A stretch of DNA of 64,000 nucleotides, taken from contig CACWTU010000001.1 of NCBI GenBank assembly GCA_902763885.1, positions 186,001-250,000 on the forward strand, read 5' to 3'. The DNA is from an uncultured Bacteroidales bacterium (GTDB lineage: Bacteria; Bacteroidota; Bacteroidia; Bacteroidales; Bacteroidaceae). The position numbers and the translations under genes are program-made. The notes beneath the pieces were generated by a model. It saw only the letters and a list, made by a program, of their open reading frames with translations, was not told the origin of the DNA and did not search any database. Shown here piece by piece: positions 9,531 through 57,726 of the stretch (positions are counted from its first letter, which is position 1; every line of letters starts with the position of its first letter).

Positions 9531-9682
9531 ATTGTTTGGTTAATTAATTATTTAGTTATCAGGTTATTAAGTATAACTTTGATCTGTTTGGACAAAGGAC
9601 AGTCCGCACGGATTGCGCAGTTATAGCGCGTAAAGATAATAAGAATTTCAGATATGATGGTTATTTTATACCTTTTTTTATT

Positions 9683-9723
9683 AAAAAATGCGTCCGGGCC
9701 ATATTTGTAACGGTCCGGACGCA
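9683..9723 (-). terminator. Rho-independent terminator for the xylB-GH8 operon
   Basis: Read on the minus strand, a hairpin with arms TGCGTCCGG and CCGGACGCA is followed by a run of T residues. It lies just after the GH8 stop. Confidence 0.85.
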
Positions 9724-12842: not shown

Positions 12843-15209
12843 ATGAAGAAAACTTTGCTTATTGCCTTGGTGACCATGCTTTCACTGTCATGTTCATCAC
12901 AAAATCATGAACTTAAACTTTGGTACAACACCCCCGCACAACAGTGGACCGATGCCCTCCCGCTCGGTAACGGACGATTGGGCGCCATGGTGTTCGGTAC
13001 ACCGGCCCAGGAACGTATTCAAATCAACGAGGAGACCATTTGGGGCGGAGGTCCTCATAACAATGTAAACTACGCCGCCAAGGATGGGTTGGATAAGATA
13101 CGTACAGCCCTTTGGGAAGGCCGCAGGTCCGATGCCCAGGCTCTTTGCGATGAGTACATTTCGTCCAAGAGCGCACATGGTATGCCTTATCAGACAGCCG
13201 GTTCGCTTATGCTTGATTTTGACGGAATCACCGATTTCACCGACTATTACAGGGAGCTGGACATAGACCGCGCCGTGGCTCTGACCCGCTTCAAGGCAAA
13301 TGGTGTGGAATATACACGCGAGTGTTTCGTATCATTCCCGGATCAGGTAATAGCACTGCGTCTTACAGCATCGGCCAAGGGTGCCCTCTCGTTCAAGGCC
13401 AGTTACAACCTGCCTTACCGTGATGACCGGATTCTGAGCCGTTCAGCACAGATTGACGGCAAGCAGGCTACAATGACCGTATCCTGCAAGGGTGATGACC
13501 ATGAGGGTATAGAGGGTAAGATACGCTTTACAGACAAGACCCTGATCATTCCCCAGGGTGGCAGCATGACATCGGCCGATAATGCCATAACGGTAAATGG
13601 AGCCGATGCCGTTACCATATACATATCAATAGGTACAAACTTTGTGAATTACCAGAGCGTAGGAGCCGATGAGAACAAGGCCGCTGACCGCTGGCTGGAG
13701 CCTTTCATAAAGGGTAAGAAAAAATATGCCACCGTATTGGCCAATAATATAAAGGAGTATCAGAAACAGTTTGGAACCGTTACTCTTGACCTGGGTACCA
13801 ATGACCAGGCCAAACTGCCTACCGATCAGCGTGTAGCACAGTTTGCCCAGACCTTTGACCCGCAGCTGGTGGAACTCTACTTCCAGTTTGGCCGGTACCT
13901 GCTCATTTGCTGCTCACAGCCGGGCGGACAGGCCGCCAACCTGCAGGGTATCTGGAACGAGAGCCGTCAGGCTCCCTGGGATGGTAAATACACCACCAAC
14001 ATCAACGTTGAGATGAACTACTGGCCGGCATTCGTATGCGGCATACCCCAGACATTCGATCCGTTCCTGCAGCTGGTCAAGGATTGCGCCGAGCACGGAA
14101 AGGAGACCGCCGCCATGTACGGCTGCCGCGGCTGGACCCTGCACCACAACACCGATATATGGCGCTCCACAGGTGCCGTAGATGGTGCCTATAACGGCAT
14201 GTGGCCCACCGGTGCCGCCTGGTTCTGCCAGCAGATATGGGACGGTTATCTGTTCAACCAGGACCGCAAGTATCTTGAGGAGATATATCCTATAATGAAG
14301 AGTGCCTGCGAGTTCTTCATAGACTTCCTGGTGGAGGAACCCGTATCGGGTCACAAGTATCTTGTAATTGCACCGTCTTACTCACCTGAGAACGCACCCC
14401 ACGTACAGGATGTGTTGGGCAAGGGTAACATAACCACCGTATTCGGTGCCACGATGGATAACCAGATGATGGCCGATTTGTTCGGTAATATGATCGATGC
14501 CGCCGAGCTGATGGGTGAAAAGGATGCCGAGTTCGTAAAGACACTCAAGAACGTCAAGAGCCGTCTGGCTCCCATGAAGATAGGCAGCTGGGGACAGCTG
14601 CAGGAGTGGTTTGAGGATTGGGATGACCCCAAGGATAACCATCGCCACGTATCACACCTGTGGGGCATGTATCCCGGACGTCAGATCACTGCCGACGGCA
14701 CCCCTGACCTGTTCAAGGCAGTACGCACCAGCCTTGAAGCACGCGGTGACGAATCGACCGGCTGGTCAATGGGCTGGAAAGTCTGCCTGTGGGCCCGCCT
14801 GCTTGACGGTAACCACGCATATAAGCTCATCCAGGATCAGATCAAGCCTGCCGGCGGACGCGGATTTGGCGGTCGTGGCGGTACATATAACAACCTGTTC
14901 GATGCACACCCGCCATTCCAGATTGACGGAAACTTTGGCTGCACCGCCGGTATTGCCGAGATGCTGGTTCAGAGCCACACCGGTAAGGTAGTCCTGCTGC
15001 CCGCTCTGCCCGATGTATGGAAGGACGGATCAGTCAAGGGTCTTTGCTGCCGCGGCGGATTCGTACTGGAGGAACTTACCTGGAAGGACGGTAAGCCCGC
15101 TATTGTCAAAGTGCGCTCCACTGTTGGCGGCAAACTGGATATTGCCTGGAACGGAAGCGAGCAGAGTCTGGACACTAAGGCTGGCAAAGAGTACAGCATC
15201 AAGTTCTGA
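12843..15209 (+). CDS. Glycoside hydrolase family 95 lipoprotein (alpha-L-fucosidase or alpha-L-galactosidase)
   Basis: 788 residues from the chosen ATG, which gives a lipoprotein signal (SLSC, Cys about 17). The N-terminal beta-domain starts LKLWYNTPAQQWTDALPLGN. The (alpha/alpha)6 barrel carries the expected catalytic set: Asn about 386 and 388 (TNINVEMNYWP), acid Glu about 516 (SYSPENAPH) and Asp about 695 (FQIDGNFG). GH95 enzymes invert and remove alpha-1,2-linked L-fucose, or L-galactose, from side chains such as those of xyloglucan. With the GH9, GH43 and GH51 neighbours a plant hemicellulose target is more likely than host glycans. The segment with the next gene is bracketed by inverted repeats. 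Confidence 0.92.
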   Translation: MKKTLLIALVTMLSLSCSSQNHELKLWYNTPAQQWTDALPLGNGRLGAMVFGTPAQERIQINEETIWGGGPHNNVNYAAKDGLDKIRTALWEGRRSDAQALCDEYISSKSAHGMPYQTAGSLMLDFDGITDFTDYYRELDIDRAVALTRFKANGVEYTRECFVSFPDQVIALRLTASAKGALSFKASYNLPYRDDRILSRSAQIDGKQATMTVSCKGDDHEGIEGKIRFTDKTLIIPQGGSMTSADNAITVNGADAVTIYISIGTNFVNYQSVGADENKAADRWLEPFIKGKKKYATVLANNIKEYQKQFGTVTLDLGTNDQAKLPTDQRVAQFAQTFDPQLVELYFQFGRYLLICCSQPGGQAANLQGIWNESRQAPWDGKYTTNINVEMNYWPAFVCGIPQTFDPFLQLVKDCAEHGKETAAMYGCRGWTLHHNTDIWRSTGAVDGAYNGMWPTGAAWFCQQIWDGYLFNQDRKYLEEIYPIMKSACEFFIDFLVEEPVSGHKYLVIAPSYSPENAPHVQDVLGKGNITTVFGATMDNQMMADLFGNMIDAAELMGEKDAEFVKTLKNVKSRLAPMKIGSWGQLQEWFEDWDDPKDNHRHVSHLWGMYPGRQITADGTPDLFKAVRTSLEARGDESTGWSMGWKVCLWARLLDGNHAYKLIQDQIKPAGGRGFGGRGGTYNNLFDAHPPFQIDGNFGCTAGIAEMLVQSHTGKVVLLPALPDVWKDGSVKGLCCRGGFVLEELTWKDGKPAIVKVRSTVGGKLDIAWNGSEQSLDTKAGKEYSIKF

Positions 15210-15259
15210 TGCTAAAAATACTATCGCACCTGCGTTTCCCCAAGCGTGCCTCTAATCCA

Positions 15260-15565
15260 CACAAGGATTCCAGCTGCGCCAAGTAAAACCAAACCTTTTT
15301 TAGCGAAGCCCAAGAAGGTTTGGTTTTACCCGGCCTGGAGGGCCGGCAAGCGTAGTGAAACGAAGCGCGTTTCCAGAAGGAAACTAAAAAAGGTTGAATT
15401 ATATTCGACCTTTTCTCGCCACGACAGAGTGAGTAAACTCCCTCTGTTCGTCTGGCTTAACGAAAACGTTGTTTCTAATACGCAGATAGGATTCCATCCT
15501 GACGCTTAAGGCCTTCAGGCCGTAAAGCGCAAAAAACGAGCGTAGCGAAGCAGCGAGATACCTTT
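15260..15565 (+). repeat. Multi-hairpin structured element, copy 1
   Basis: Gene-free stretch of 395 bases between GH95 and the porin. It opens with CACAAGGATTCCAGCT, then a hairpin from GTAAAACCAAACCTT to AAGGTTTGGTTTTAC. This is followed by short stems CGGCC/GGCCG and GTTTCC/GGAAAC, a stretch ACGCAGATA, a stem around GGCCTTCAGGCC, and GCGTAGCGAAGCAGCGAGA. All of these recur in the same order at 55438-55660. This copy carries about 80 extra bases after AAAAAAGGTTG. Downstream of the GH95 stop (15219-15256) there is also a fragment of the GCGTCC-type repeat (CACCTGCGTTTCC). Confidence 0.85.
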
Positions 15566-15604
15566 CCGGATGGAAAAAAGAAAAAACAACTATAAACTAA
15601 AAAT

Positions 15605-16822
15605 ATGAAAATCAAAAACGTACTCCTGCAGGCCCTAACATTAAGCCTGCTCCCCCTGAGCGCAACCGCTCAGAAACAAGTGTCAATTGACTGGTACGGC
15701 TTTGTTGCCGCACAATCATTTACGGATACACATGCCAGTCAGGCAAAAGCCGAGGGTTTTCTCTATCAGTTTCCTTTAGACAAGGATGCTGATCTCCAGG
15801 GAAATGACCTTAACAGCTACACGTACGGTTCAGAGTTCGGAACCATGGCACGCTTAGGCTTTACCCTGAAAGGCCCCGATATCCTTGGCGCATCTACCCG
15901 TGCAAAAGCTGAGATAGAGTTCTCCGGACATAAATCCGGCGAGATTCTTTACCGTCATGCTTTTATGGCATTTGACTGGGATGACGGCGGTACTCTTATT
16001 CTTGGCCAGACCTGGCATCCTATGAATGACCTGTTCCCGTCAACAGTTGGTATTGCTATAGGTGCACCCTTTAACCCTCTGAACCGCAGTCCGCAGTTGC
16101 GTGGTGAAGGTTTCCTGGATAAGAATCAGAAAATCAAGCTTACAATTGCCTGCATATTCCAGTCCATGAACACATCGACAGGTCCTGCTGGAAATTCTTA
16201 CAACTATATACGCAACTCCTTGAGACCAATGATATATGGAGGTCTTGATTTCAAGCTGGGTGACCTTAAGCTGGGCGCAGGCGTTGAATACCAGGATATA
16301 GTTCCTCTCATGGATGCCACTGACAACAACAAGAAATATCACCTTACCGGCTTTACCGGAATGGTTCAGGCTCATTATGCCAAGGATAAGCTCTCTATAA
16401 AGGCCAAGGGTCTTTTAGGCCAGAATATGTCACATCTGGGCATCTGCTCCGGCTACGGTCAGGTGGCTGATCCTAACATTACCGGAAAAATAGAGTATGC
16501 TCCGCTTACCGCCCTTTCCTCATGGGCTCAGGTTCAGTATGGCGGTGCTCTCAAGTTTGGACTGTTCGGAGGCTATATGAAAAACTATGGTGCAGACAAG
16601 GATCTTGATGCTACCAAGATCTACGCCATTGGCGGTGGAAAGATTGACAGCATGTGGAGGCTCACTCCCAATGTCACCTACACCACAGGTAACGTGGTTT
16701 TTGGATGTGAGTTTGAATTTACATCGGTAGCATACGGAAAGGTTGAGTCTAAGGGCACTGTAACTGATACACATGATGTGAACAACTTACGTTCACTCGT
16801 GTCCGTAATGTACAACTTCTAA
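15605..16822 (+). CDS. Outer-membrane porin-like beta-barrel protein
   Basis: 405 residues with a signal peptide (LSLLPLSATAQ). The mature protein is built of alternating amphipathic strands and ends in a terminal Phe (SVMYNF), as expected for an outer-membrane barrel inserted by BAM. Segments such as GTMARLGFTLKGP, AKAEIEFSG and LILGQTWHPMNDLFP resemble the DcaP-like or anion-specific trimeric porins found in Bacteroidetes. Passive uptake of small solutes or oligosaccharides is inferred; the substrate is unknown. It shares a strand with the upstream GH95 gene but is separated from it by the structured repeat, so co-transcription is uncertain. Confidence 0.75.
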   Translation: MKIKNVLLQALTLSLLPLSATAQKQVSIDWYGFVAAQSFTDTHASQAKAEGFLYQFPLDKDADLQGNDLNSYTYGSEFGTMARLGFTLKGPDILGASTRAKAEIEFSGHKSGEILYRHAFMAFDWDDGGTLILGQTWHPMNDLFPSTVGIAIGAPFNPLNRSPQLRGEGFLDKNQKIKLTIACIFQSMNTSTGPAGNSYNYIRNSLRPMIYGGLDFKLGDLKLGAGVEYQDIVPLMDATDNNKKYHLTGFTGMVQAHYAKDKLSIKAKGLLGQNMSHLGICSGYGQVADPNITGKIEYAPLTALSSWAQVQYGGALKFGLFGGYMKNYGADKDLDATKIYAIGGGKIDSMWRLTPNVTYTTGNVVFGCEFEFTSVAYGKVESKGTVTDTHDVNNLRSLVSVMYNF

Positions 16823-31804: not shown

Positions 31805-31920
31805 TGCACTATACAAATAGAAACTGGAGTCAGTTCCTAAATGATTTTTAGTGAGCGAAACCGGCCGGAGGCCGCCCTTTCGCGTTAGCGAAATAAAACA
31901 AGGTGCTTATGTGGCACCAT

Positions 31921-31957: not shown

Positions 31958-32030
31958 TGGTGCCACCGGGAATCGAACCAGGGACACAAGGATTTTCAGT
32001 CCTTTGCTCTACCAACTGAGCTATGACACC
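31958..32030 (-). tRNA. tRNA-Phe (GAA)
   Basis: 73 bases fold as a cloverleaf: acceptor GGTGTCA with TGGCACC, D-arm GCTCAGTTGGTAGAGC, anticodon stem AGGAC/ATCCT with loop containing GAA, and T-arm CTGGTTCGATTCCCGG. The discriminator is A and no CCA is encoded. Confidence 0.97.
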
Positions 32031-33306: not shown

Positions 33307-33408
33307 TCAGAATGACAGTCTCCTTTTTTTACCTAATCGAAAATGCGCATTTGAATGCAGATATATATAATAATGTAATATATTTGCAGCACAACCGGAA
33401 AGGGGTAT

Positions 33409-55430: not shown

Positions 55431-55437
55431 GTAAATG

Positions 55438-55660
55438 CACAAGGTTTCCAGCTAAGAGTAAAAATTTAGGCGCCTTTTGGGGCGCCATAATTTTTACCCG
55501 GCCTGAAAGGCCGGCAAGCGACCGTAGGGAGCGCGTTTCCAGAAGGAAACTAAAAAAAGGTTGTTTCTGATACGCAGATATGTTTCCATCCTGACGCTTT
55601 AGGCCTTTAGGCCGTAAAGCGCAAAAACCGAGCGTAGCGAAGCAGCGAGAAATCCGCCGC
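55438..55660 (+). repeat. Multi-hairpin structured element, copy 2
   Basis: Begins CACAAGGTTTCCAGCT, then a hairpin with ends GTAAAAATT and AATTTTTAC and inner arms GGCGCC/GGCGCC. The same series as copy 1 follows: CGGCC/GGCCG, GTTTCC/GGAAAC, AAAAAAAGGTTG, ACGCAGATA, AGGCCTTTAGGCC and GCGTAGCGAAGCAGCGAGA. The ~80-base block present in copy 1 is absent. It fills the gap between the convergent folE and dnaG genes. Confidence 0.85.
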
Positions 55661-55671
55661 ATGGAATAATC

Positions 55672-57726
55672 TTAAAGATTGACAACCCTCTCTCCCAATA
55701 CCTTAGAGAGTTCAGCCCGGGCGGACAGGAGCTGCTTGTAGCGGCGCTGGAGTTCCATAAGCTTATCAGTTGACTCCAGGGCTGAGGGATCCTGCATCTG
55801 CTTTTCTATCTCTTTGATCTCAAGGCGGAGCACCTCCATCTGGTAGTCGGCCATGATGTGACGGGTGAGTTGTAGCAGACGTTGCCCGTCCTCAACGGGT
55901 TTGTTGTCCTTGAAGATGGTACTCAGCTGGTAACGCTCCTCCATGAGGCTGGCGGCTGTGAGGCTAACGAATGTCTCGGGGTGGGACATGAAGAACTTTT
56001 CGCTGTTGAAATCCTTCTCTTCAAGATGCTCGGCCATGAGCTCCACAAAACGCTTATAGACAGGATGGCGGAACTCGAGCCCATCATTCTGTAGTGAGCC
56101 TACTATGAATTGTCCTACAGTCATATCTTGCTCCTGATCCTCTTCATTACGGAAGGTACACATCACTTTGCCACCATATCTTACTATGAGTTGGGACAGG
56201 AGGCGTTCTTTATCCATCATGGGGCCCAGGCCTTCACGTTTCAGTGCGCGGACTTGTTGACGTAGTTTATCTTCTGCTGAAATCTCAGGTTGCGGGGCGG
56301 GTTCGGAAGGTGTATCGGGCGTGTCAGGATTATCTGATTCAGTGGTGGCTGGTTCTGGATTTTGCCCGTTTTCATCGGCTGATTGGGCTGGACGAGGGGC
56401 TTGCGCAGCCGCTTGAGCCTGCTCGCGTTGGCGGCGGTTCACGTCATTAATGAGCAGACGCTCATCAATCTTCATTATCTGGCTGCACTCGGTGATATAG
56501 ACTGACCGTACAATGGGATCCTGTATTACCGATATGCTCTGCGTGATACTCTTGATAAGCTCGCTGCGGCTGTAGGGATCATCGGCCGCATCCTCCATAA
56601 GGAGGTTCACCTTGAAGCGGATGAAATCCACCTGGTGAGTGTCAATGTATTTCTGGAACTCGGTGGCTCCGCGGCCCTGGGCAAAGCTGTCGGGGTCCTC
56701 ACCGTCGGGCAGCAGCAGGACCTTTACGTTCATGCCCTCTGCCAATAGCATGTCTATACCGCGCAGGGAGGCTTTTATGCCGGCCTTATCGCCGTCATAG
56801 AGTACGGTGATGTTGTTGGTAAAACGGTGTATCAAGCGTATCTGACCGGGGGTAAGAGATGTGCCGCTTGATGCAACTACATTCTCCACGCCACTCTGGA
56901 ACATAGATATGACATCGGCATAACCCTCTACCAGGAAGCAGCGGTCCCTGCGTACTATGGCCTGCTTGGCCTGCCAAAGTCCATAGAGTTCACGGCTCTT
57001 GGAGTATATTATGGATTCCGGAGAGTTTACGTACTTGGCTACCTTGGCATCGGCATTCATTATGCGGCCGCCGAATGCCACCACCTTGCCTGCTATGGAG
57101 TGCACGGGGAATATAACGCGGCCGTGGAAACGGTCACGCAGCTGGCCGTCATTCTCACGCTCGTAACAGAGTCCGGTCTTGATGAGGTTCTCCTTTGTGT
57201 AACCTTTGGCCAATGCGGCACGGGCCAGAGCATCGGGCTCATCGGGACAGTAACCCAGGTGGAACTTTTCCAGTATGTCATCGCGGAATCCGCGCTTGCG
57301 GAAATAGGCCAGACCTATGGCGCGTCCCTTATCGGTGTTGAGCAAAGTGTCCTTGAAGAAATCCAGTGCAAACTGGTTGGTGATGAACATGGATTCACGT
57401 TCGTTCTGCAGGGCTTTCTCTGAGTCCGTGAGTTCACGCTCGTTGTATGGTATCCCGTATTTGCGGGCCAGCCATTTGGCGGCATCCCAGTATGACATCT
57501 GCTCATGCTCCATGAGAAAGTGTATCACGTTGCCGCCCTTGCCGCAGCTGAAGCACTTGCAGATTCCCTTGGAGGGGGAGACGTAGAATGACGGGGTCTT
57601 CTCGTTATGGAACGGACACAGCCCCACATAGTTCACACCGCGTTTGCGTAGGGTGACAAATTCCGATACCACATCAACAATGTTGGCGGCATCGAGTATC
57701 TTCTCTATGGTAAGCTGGTCTATCAT
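55672..57726 (-). CDS. dnaG: DNA primase
   Basis: 684 residues. The N-terminal zinc-binding CHC2 domain has Cys37, His40, Cys58 and Cys61 (CPFHNEKTPSF, CFSCGKGGN). The polymerase core with TOPRIM follows (CFLVEGYADVISM, about 262-275; TVLYDGDKAGIKAS). A linker at about 425-490 is low-complexity (Ala/Gln, then Pro/Glu/Asp), leading to the C-terminal helicase-binding helices. It synthesises RNA primers at the replication fork. No rpoD or rpsU is attached as in some bacteria. Confidence 0.97.
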   Translation of the reverse strand: MIDQLTIEKILDAANIVDVVSEFVTLRKRGVNYVGLCPFHNEKTPSFYVSPSKGICKCFSCGKGGNVIHFLMEHEQMSYWDAAKWLARKYGIPYNERELTDSEKALQNERESMFITNQFALDFFKDTLLNTDKGRAIGLAYFRKRGFRDDILEKFHLGYCPDEPDALARAALAKGYTKENLIKTGLCYERENDGQLRDRFHGRVIFPVHSIAGKVVAFGGRIMNADAKVAKYVNSPESIIYSKSRELYGLWQAKQAIVRRDRCFLVEGYADVISMFQSGVENVVASSGTSLTPGQIRLIHRFTNNITVLYDGDKAGIKASLRGIDMLLAEGMNVKVLLLPDGEDPDSFAQGRGATEFQKYIDTHQVDFIRFKVNLLMEDAADDPYSRSELIKSITQSISVIQDPIVRSVYITECSQIMKIDERLLINDVNRRQREQAQAAAQAPRPAQSADENGQNPEPATTESDNPDTPDTPSEPAPQPEISAEDKLRQQVRALKREGLGPMMDKERLLSQLIVRYGGKVMCTFRNEEDQEQDMTVGQFIVGSLQNDGLEFRHPVYKRFVELMAEHLEEKDFNSEKFFMSHPETFVSLTAASLMEERYQLSTIFKDNKPVEDGQRLLQLTRHIMADYQMEVLRLEIKEIEKQMQDPSALESTDKLMELQRRYKQLLSARAELSKVLGERVVNL

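What the first reader, a model, noticed from the sequence alone, without database searches (positions are those of the whole stretch)
15260..15565. Two copies of a multi-hairpin element whose first hairpin differs in sequence but keeps pairing
The copies at 15260-15565 and 55438-55660 share boundaries, order of stems and several exact words. The first hairpin has different arms in each copy (AAACCTT/AAGGTTT versus GGCGCC/GGCGCC), while the closing GTAAAA/TTTTAC is kept. Change of sequence with retained pairing is the signature of selected structure, and suggests a structured RNA or a transposable unit with a swappable hairpin. I do not recognise it as a known RNA family. This is my best candidate for something undescribed in the window.
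Basis: partly seen in the sequence, partly recalled or inferred. Interest (0 to 1): 0.75.

Follow-up and report, generated by a model that had tools for sequence, protein, structure and literature searches.

The report
Swappable multi-hairpin repeat between genes
In one group of related gut bacteria, a repeated stretch of DNA hairpins sits just behind the ends of genes and keeps its folded shape while whole hairpins are exchanged or inserted, and a shorter relative of it often lies next to a mirror copy of the neighbouring gene's end.

Summary
The two copies belong to a dispersed family: 13 covariance-model matches of 65 bits or more in this genome; matches, some weak, in 15 of 25 same-genus genomes and 0 of 16 genomes of other families. 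Rfam has no match. The first hairpin (H1) pairs in 97.4% of cells across 47 distinct sequences, with 145 two-sided changes.

Same-site comparison between species shows what moves. In two close pairs H1 is replaced as a block while the 3' module stays 97-100% identical. In two pairs a hairpin cassette is a clean insertion of 74-75 nt; one of these cassettes lies in window copy 1. So "a unit with a swappable hairpin" is supported.

"Selected structured RNA" is not established. Two-sided changes outnumber one-sided ones nine to one, two loops are inverted, and a related core often abuts an inverted copy of a neighbouring tRNA, 5S, SRP, tmRNA or mRNA end. Template switching leaves such marks without selection.

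Best reading: a non-autonomous, BOX/BIME-like modular palindromic element, mostly between convergent genes. Its mobiliser and function are unproven.

The parts
15217..15282 (+). 5' leader of copy 1 (begins AATAC..GCACCTGCG; carries the repeated word GGxTTCCAG)
   Evidence: similar 5' end in L002, L009, L012 and L114
15283..15329 (+). H1, the swappable hairpin, GTAAAAC...GTTTTAC
   Evidence: CM match 15283-15389; covariation
15330..15346 (+). H2, CCGGCC/GGCCGG; its arms are invariant in the 44-row alignment
15347..15368 (+). variable linker
15369..15384 (+). H3, GTTTCC-AGAA-GGAAAC (other copies: GTTTGGGGCG/CGCCCCAAAC)
15385..15393 (+). A-run, TAAAAAAGG
15397..15467 (+). cassette B, 71-nt inserted hairpin unit, GTTG on both sides (15393-15396, 15468-15471)
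   Evidence: identical in L160, L230, L153; absent at the same site in L006 against L160
15494..15573 (+). 3' module: P2 about 15503-15529, P3 15537-15557 with an A-run on its 5' side; outer P1 pairing (15494-15499 with 15568-15573) kept in a minority of copies
55434..55457 (+). short leader of copy 2
55458..55497 (+). H1 of copy 2, the other class (GTAAAAATTT..GGCGCC/GGCGCC..TTTTTAC), terminator-like on both strands
55498..55560 (+). H2 (55498-55514), linker, H3 (55535-55550), A-run TAAAAAAAGG (55551-55560)
55561..55664 (+). 3' module of copy 2, ending just before the dnaG stop at 55672
31862..31903 (+). third core (H2, H3, A-run), other element type, beside tRNA-Phe
31911..31919 (+). 9-nt inverted copy of the 3' end of tRNA-Phe (31958-31966), on the far side of its terminator
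   Evidence: exact, but too short to be significant alone

Best explanation
A non-autonomous, interspersed, modular palindromic DNA element, limited in our sample to one Bacteroidales genus, that fills the gap behind gene ends, mostly between convergent genes. SHOWN: modular build; dispersed copies; presence or absence at the same site between species; block exchange of H1 (with the leader in one pair); insertion of hairpin cassettes; inverted copies of neighbouring gene ends beside a related core. INFERRED: new H1 alleles come by ectopic recombination (gene conversion) with other copies, and stems are created, lengthened and kept perfect by template-switch (fold-back) replication at these palindromes. 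Selection mainly removes copies that hurt genes and keeps hairpins that work as terminators: P3 with its A-run for the minus-strand gene, H1 perhaps for the plus-strand gene. The enzyme that dispersed the core is unknown.
For: Dispersed family. Presence or absence: behind folE, 3 of 19 readable loci carry the element (G000, G020, G022), 1 a remnant (G008), 15 none. Block swap: L005/L086 3' flank 98% over 300 nt, core 1.00, 3' module 0.97, H1 0.52, left flank 94.8% over 1335 nt up to the element; L067/L188 differ by H1 and one clean 74-nt gap, with 218 identical nt to the right of the cassette site and identical sequence from H2 to it (3' flank 92% over 292 nt). 9 of 21 H1s from diverged same-site pairs have a match of 0.96 or more at another site; 3 more matched only their own site (recounted by hand). 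Cassette B insertion. H1: 145 two-sided against 16 one-sided cells, 23 unpaired, of 893. Inverted loop in 2 of 70 H1s with a recognised loop. Inverted gene-end copies: score 14 or more in 37 of 56 sites against 33 of 552 permuted pairs. Context: of 76 resolved, 52 convergent, 20 tandem behind a co-oriented gene, 3 tandem reversed, 1 divergent; 34 of 110 unresolved. AAAA within 14 nt before P3 in 86 of 98.
Against: Tandem orientation 20 to 3 (p 0.0005, not corrected for relatedness or replication strand) and the G-T over A-C excess hint at a role of the plus strand as RNA. No target-site duplication or terminal repeat was found for the whole element, so transposition of the whole unit is not proven. 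Among 21 same-site pairs with flank 85% or more, H1 is less alike than the core in 11 and than the 3' module in 14 (cassettes lower the core and module values), so other modules turn over too. Full-type elements show no inverted gene-end copy (0 of 40). Template switching itself was not observed. A simple terminator scan did not call P3 in either window copy.
Confidence: 0.6

Rival explanations
1. A selected structured RNA: the hairpins act in the 3' untranslated part of the upstream gene's mRNA (stabiliser, terminator or protein-binding site), and compensatory change reflects selection on RNA pairing.
For: Orientation behind co-oriented genes 20 to 3; G-T 21 against A-C 7; strong covariation; copy-2 H1 is terminator-like.
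Against: One-sided intermediates are scarce (16 against 145 cells); H1 is replaced as a block in the closest pairs; on a wider H1 set G-T against A-C is only 23 to 13; P1 is seen in 25 of 102 by a simple pattern and many linkers have no hairpin (by eye); patchy within the genus (14 of 25 by DNA search; 15 of 25 by model).
Confidence: 0.2
2. A REP/BIME-type element moved by a RAYT or other Y1 (HUH) transposase acting on single-stranded hairpins.
For: Hairpin-rich, intergenic, between convergent genes; GNA against TNC triloops on the plus strand: H2 108 to 0, P3 17 to 1, P2 15 to 5; Y1 transposase matches in 18 of 25 genus genomes, own genome included.
Against: In the printed flanks of the five Y1 genes inspected, the palindromes are of other types (GGGGAC/GGGGTC families), not this element. 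G007, G009, G010 and G020 carry element matches but show no Y1 match (draft genomes, 78-97% complete).
Confidence: 0.12
3. Reverse-transcription product: self-primed cDNA of a transcript's 3' hairpin joined to an element RNA ending in AAAAAAAGG.
For: Inverted copies of tRNA, 5S, SRP, tmRNA and mRNA ends lie between the A-run and the gene's terminator. The own genome has two reverse-transcriptase matches.
Against: Reverse-transcriptase domains were found in only 4 of 25 genus genomes (G000, G001, G018, G021) and not in element-rich G008, G020, G022 (draft genomes). Inverted extensions also occur without a recognised core.
Confidence: 0.05

Closest known systems
BOX, RUP and SPRITE repeats of Streptococcus pneumoniae (PMC3049150: abstract and one section read)
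   Same: Short, dispersed stem-loop repeats; BOX is modular, with boxB absent or repeated; the authors think them parasitic; SPRITE is terminator-like.
   Different: Sequence relation not tested; other phylum; here hairpin alleles differ at the same site between species, and a related core abuts inverted copies of gene ends.
REP / BIME elements (PMC1525189: passages only)
   Same: Palindromes frequent between convergent genes; reported there to bind gyrase, IHF and DNA polymerase I.
   Different: Much longer here (about 230-360 nt), several distinct hairpins, no link seen to the Y1 genes of these genomes.
Template-switch mutations that create and maintain hairpins (PMC8794818: abstract and passages)
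   Same: Several compensatory changes at once, stem extension, inverted loops.
   Different: There inferred in rRNA and other RNA genes; here in a repeat family and behind tRNA genes. A mechanism, not an element family; its formal test was not run here.
MITEs (general knowledge, recalled)
   Same: Small non-autonomous units; cassette B has clean filled and empty states with GTTG on both sides.
   Different: Whole element: no terminal inverted repeats seen by eye and no resolved duplication.

Membership tests
Rfam families | covariance-model score at or above the gathering score | tested here: not met
   window: only two tRNAs; five loci with E up to 0.1: only tRNAs at gathering level
REP/BIME moved by RAYT | cognate Y1 transposase gene flanked by the same repeat | tested here: not met
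   three own-genome genes plus L199 and L201: other palindromes in the printed flanks; no Y1 match in G007, G009, G010, G020
REP/BIME moved by RAYT | extragenic palindromes in many copies | tested here: met
   none of 110 inside a called ORF; up to 63 model matches in one genome, antisense echoes included
BOX-type modular repeats | modules in fixed order, variable module content, dispersed | tested here: met
   read by eye
BOX-type modular repeats | sequence similarity to boxA, boxB or boxC | not tested
   box models not on hand
MITE | terminal inverted repeats and target-site duplication of the whole element | tested here: inconclusive
   no terminal repeat seen by eye; sites without the element behind folE too diverged to show a duplication
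MITE (cassette B only) | precise insertion with short direct repeats | tested here: met
   one filled/empty pair
Template-switch hairpin evolution | block compensation, stem extension, inverted loops | tested here: inconclusive
   patterns present, but no ancestral reconstruction or simulation was run and the process was not observed
Selected structured RNA | transcript and pairing-dependent function | not testable with these tools
   needs RNA-seq and mutants

The most novel reading that the evidence does not exclude
The core (H2, H3, A-run ending in GG) is an active hairpin maker: it repeatedly drives fold-back copying at its A-run end, capturing a mirror copy of whatever gene end lies next to it (tRNA, 5S, SRP RNA, tmRNA, mRNA) and so building new extended terminators and a supply of exchangeable stems across the genome.
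Probability: 0.15. Interest if true: 0.85.

Novelty: new variant of a known kind. Interest (0 to 1): 0.6.

Why it matters
Covariation is the usual proof of a functional RNA structure. This family gives a natural case, with dozens of alleles and same-site pairs between species, where strong covariation goes with block exchange and, in the related core, with mirror copies of gene ends, so it can test how far covariation can be trusted. It also suggests how terminators at tRNA and protein genes may grow out of the gene's own mirror copy.

Tried and rejected
Whole-element transposon with terminal repeats: none seen by eye. Viral carriage: of two exact-pattern scans of viral contigs one gave 0 matches and one gave 1, which lies in a stretch without the rest of the core and was taken as chance. 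Pattern hits without H1 were dropped as chance: 7 of 124 sites (L097, L126, L132, L159, L161, L184, L187; the five whose titles were listed are Competibacteraceae, Saprospiraceae, Paraburkholderia, Pseudomonas and a Bacteroidetes MAG), and L194 was cut off by the contig end. RAYT and reverse transcriptase as movers: see rivals. P1 as a conserved stem: 25 of 102 by a simple pattern, so not claimed. Loop-triad strand test: H1 loop calling was ambiguous and is not used. A narrow regular expression found only 12 cores and was replaced by a profile search.

Rows dropped: one search kept 110 elements with H1 plus flanks, 77 distinct class-a H1s; one search used only the 47 distinct 47-nt H1s; one search used the first 44 of 70 eligible rows; one search used 96 of 102 sites (56 second-type, 40 full-type), dropping 6 too near a locus end; one search read 21 of the 25 folE matches, 19 successfully. 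One search scored at most 85 candidates per genome with strict filters, so its counts are lower bounds. In one search the criterion 'starts at the tRNA end' was chosen after looking, and the core was recognised by a simple pattern that misses degenerate cores (G018, perhaps G014). Replication-strand bias was not tested. No paper on this family appeared in the listings of searches, which cover open-licence papers only.

Full report
OBSERVATION. Both copies are present. They share H2, H3, the A-run and much of the 3' module, while H1 differs between GTAAAA and TTTTAC. Both fold better than all shuffles. Rfam gives only tRNAs at gathering level. The spans are about 15217-15573 and 55434-55664. 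Copy 1 lies between a GH95-type glycoside hydrolase gene ending at 15209 and a 405-aa gene without a Pfam match starting at 15605; copy 2 lies between a GTP cyclohydrolase I gene (folE, + strand) and a DNA primase gene (dnaG, - strand).

FAMILY. A DNA search of the own genome gave 46 matching pieces at a loose threshold. A covariance model built from 44 copies gives 29 matches at E 0.001 in the own genome, some of them antisense echoes of the palindromic H1; 13 score 65 bits or more (counted from the listing). It has matches in 15 of 25 genomes of the genus, six of them with three matches or fewer and best E-values no better than 1e-10, and in none of 16 genomes from other families of the order (at most 85 candidates scored per genome). 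The DNA search gave 14 of 25 and 0 of 16. Some titles name ruminant stomachs; that RUG stands for rumen genomes is recalled.

ANATOMY, plus strand: leader (AATAC..GCACCTGCG, then repeats of a GGTTTCCAG word), H1, H2, linker, H3 in two alternative forms, A-run, a CTAATACGCAGATAGG word, then P2 and P3. AAAA lies within 14 nt before P3 in 86 of 98 modules, so P3 is terminator-like on the minus strand; TTTT follows within 10 nt in 1 of 98. The pattern scan did not call P3 in the two window copies.

PLACE. Of 110 elements, none lay inside a called ORF and 76 had both neighbours within 400 nt: 52 convergent, 20 tandem behind a co-oriented gene, 3 tandem reversed, 1 divergent; 34 were unresolved. Behind folE, 19 of 21 loci put in could be read: G000, G020 and G022 carry an element, G008 keeps a remnant of the 5' end next to another hairpin repeat, and 15 have a bare gap or unrelated palindromes (the next gene was not checked in each).

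H1 VARIATION. On 47 distinct H1s, 97.4% of 893 cells pair; 13 of 19 pairs change on both sides; 145 cells have two-sided changes (shuffled mean 34.4), 16 one-sided, 23 are unpaired (13 of these at the innermost pair); covariation is 0.483 (shuffled 0.149). G-T against A-C is 21 to 7 on this set (p 0.013, related rows not corrected) and 23 to 13 on 77 H1s over 14 pairs. Two of 70 H1s with a recognised loop carry it inverted.

SAME SITE, DIFFERENT SPECIES. 54 pairs with alignable 3' flanks were compared. In L005/L086 the 3' flank is 98%, core 1.00 and 3' module 0.97, but H1 is 0.52; the left flank is 94.8% over 1335 nt up to the element, so leader plus H1 was replaced as a block. In L067/L188 the sequence from H2 to the cassette site is identical, and so are 218 nt to its right, while cassette A is a clean 74-nt gap and H1 differs; the 3' flank as a whole is 92%. 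In L006/L160 cassette B is a clean 75-nt gap with GTTG on both sides; the same 71 nt lies in window copy 1. Of 21 H1s from diverged pairs, 9 match another site at 0.96 or more, 3 match only their own site that well, 9 match less well (recounted). Against a special role of H1: among 21 pairs with flank 85% or more, H1 is less alike than the core in 11 and than the 3' module in 14, so all modules turn over.

SECOND TYPE AND MIRROR COPIES. The same kind of core, with another 5' part, lies beside tRNA, 5S, SRP RNA and tmRNA genes and some protein genes (RNA genes confirmed); its query matched 21 of 25 genus genomes and 0 of 16 others (the query shares its core with the first type). When a tRNA or tmRNA lies within 260 nt to its right, it is on the minus strand in 38 of 38 cases; 18 of 56 sites had none. 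Next to the A-run there is often an inverted copy of the gene's 3' end, with the gene's terminator in the middle: alignment score 14 or more in 37 of 56 sites against 33 of 552 permuted pairs; 0 of 40 full-type elements show it. At the tRNA-Lys locus in 24 genomes, the alignment beats all 50 shuffles in 6 of 10 loci with a recognised core and 2 of 14 without. Counting any match that starts at the tRNA end, a criterion set after looking, it is 10 of 10 against 6 of 14 (Fisher p 0.006, relatedness not corrected). One of the 6, G018, carries degenerate cores by eye. The window's third core shows an exact 9-nt version.

MECHANISM. Monttinen and Loytynoja (PMC8794818, abstract and passages) state that template switching gives several compensatory changes at once, stem extension and inverted loops. 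All three patterns occur here, so covariation alone cannot prove selection; their formal test was not run. The recurrence of the same H1 alleles at unrelated sites needs exchange between copies as well. What dispersed the core is unknown: the Y1 genes inspected lie beside other repeats, and reverse-transcriptase matches occur in 4 of 25 genomes, the own genome included.

STANDING. It works like BOX/BIME-type modular palindromic repeats. Membership in the RAYT-linked REP class was tested and not met. Sequence membership in BOX was not tested.

Noticed in passing
window 31862-31919: Third core beside tRNA-Phe, with an exact 9-nt inverted copy of the tRNA end.
   Followed up: partly
L202, L218, L225 (own genome): Three Y1/RAYT-like transposase genes with palindromes of other types (GGGGAC/GGGGTC families) in their flanks.
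   Followed up: partly
gap behind folE in L231, L232, L235, L237, L239: Relatives carry other, unrelated palindromic repeats at the site of window copy 2, so this gap looks like a hot spot for hairpin repeats.
   Followed up: no
L322 (G018) tRNA-Lys locus: A core facing the protein gene, followed by an inverted copy of that gene's 3' end.
   Followed up: no
L265 (own genome), 1500-1683: A core abutting the Bacteroidales small SRP RNA gene, with an inverted copy of its end.
   Followed up: partly
L093, L094, L122, L148, L175, L178, L186: A further hairpin cassette (TAACCCATCTGG..TGACATT) before the 3' module.
   Followed up: partly
window 9671-9683 and 33322-33334, minus strand: Near matches to the A-run motif, not examined.
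   Followed up: no
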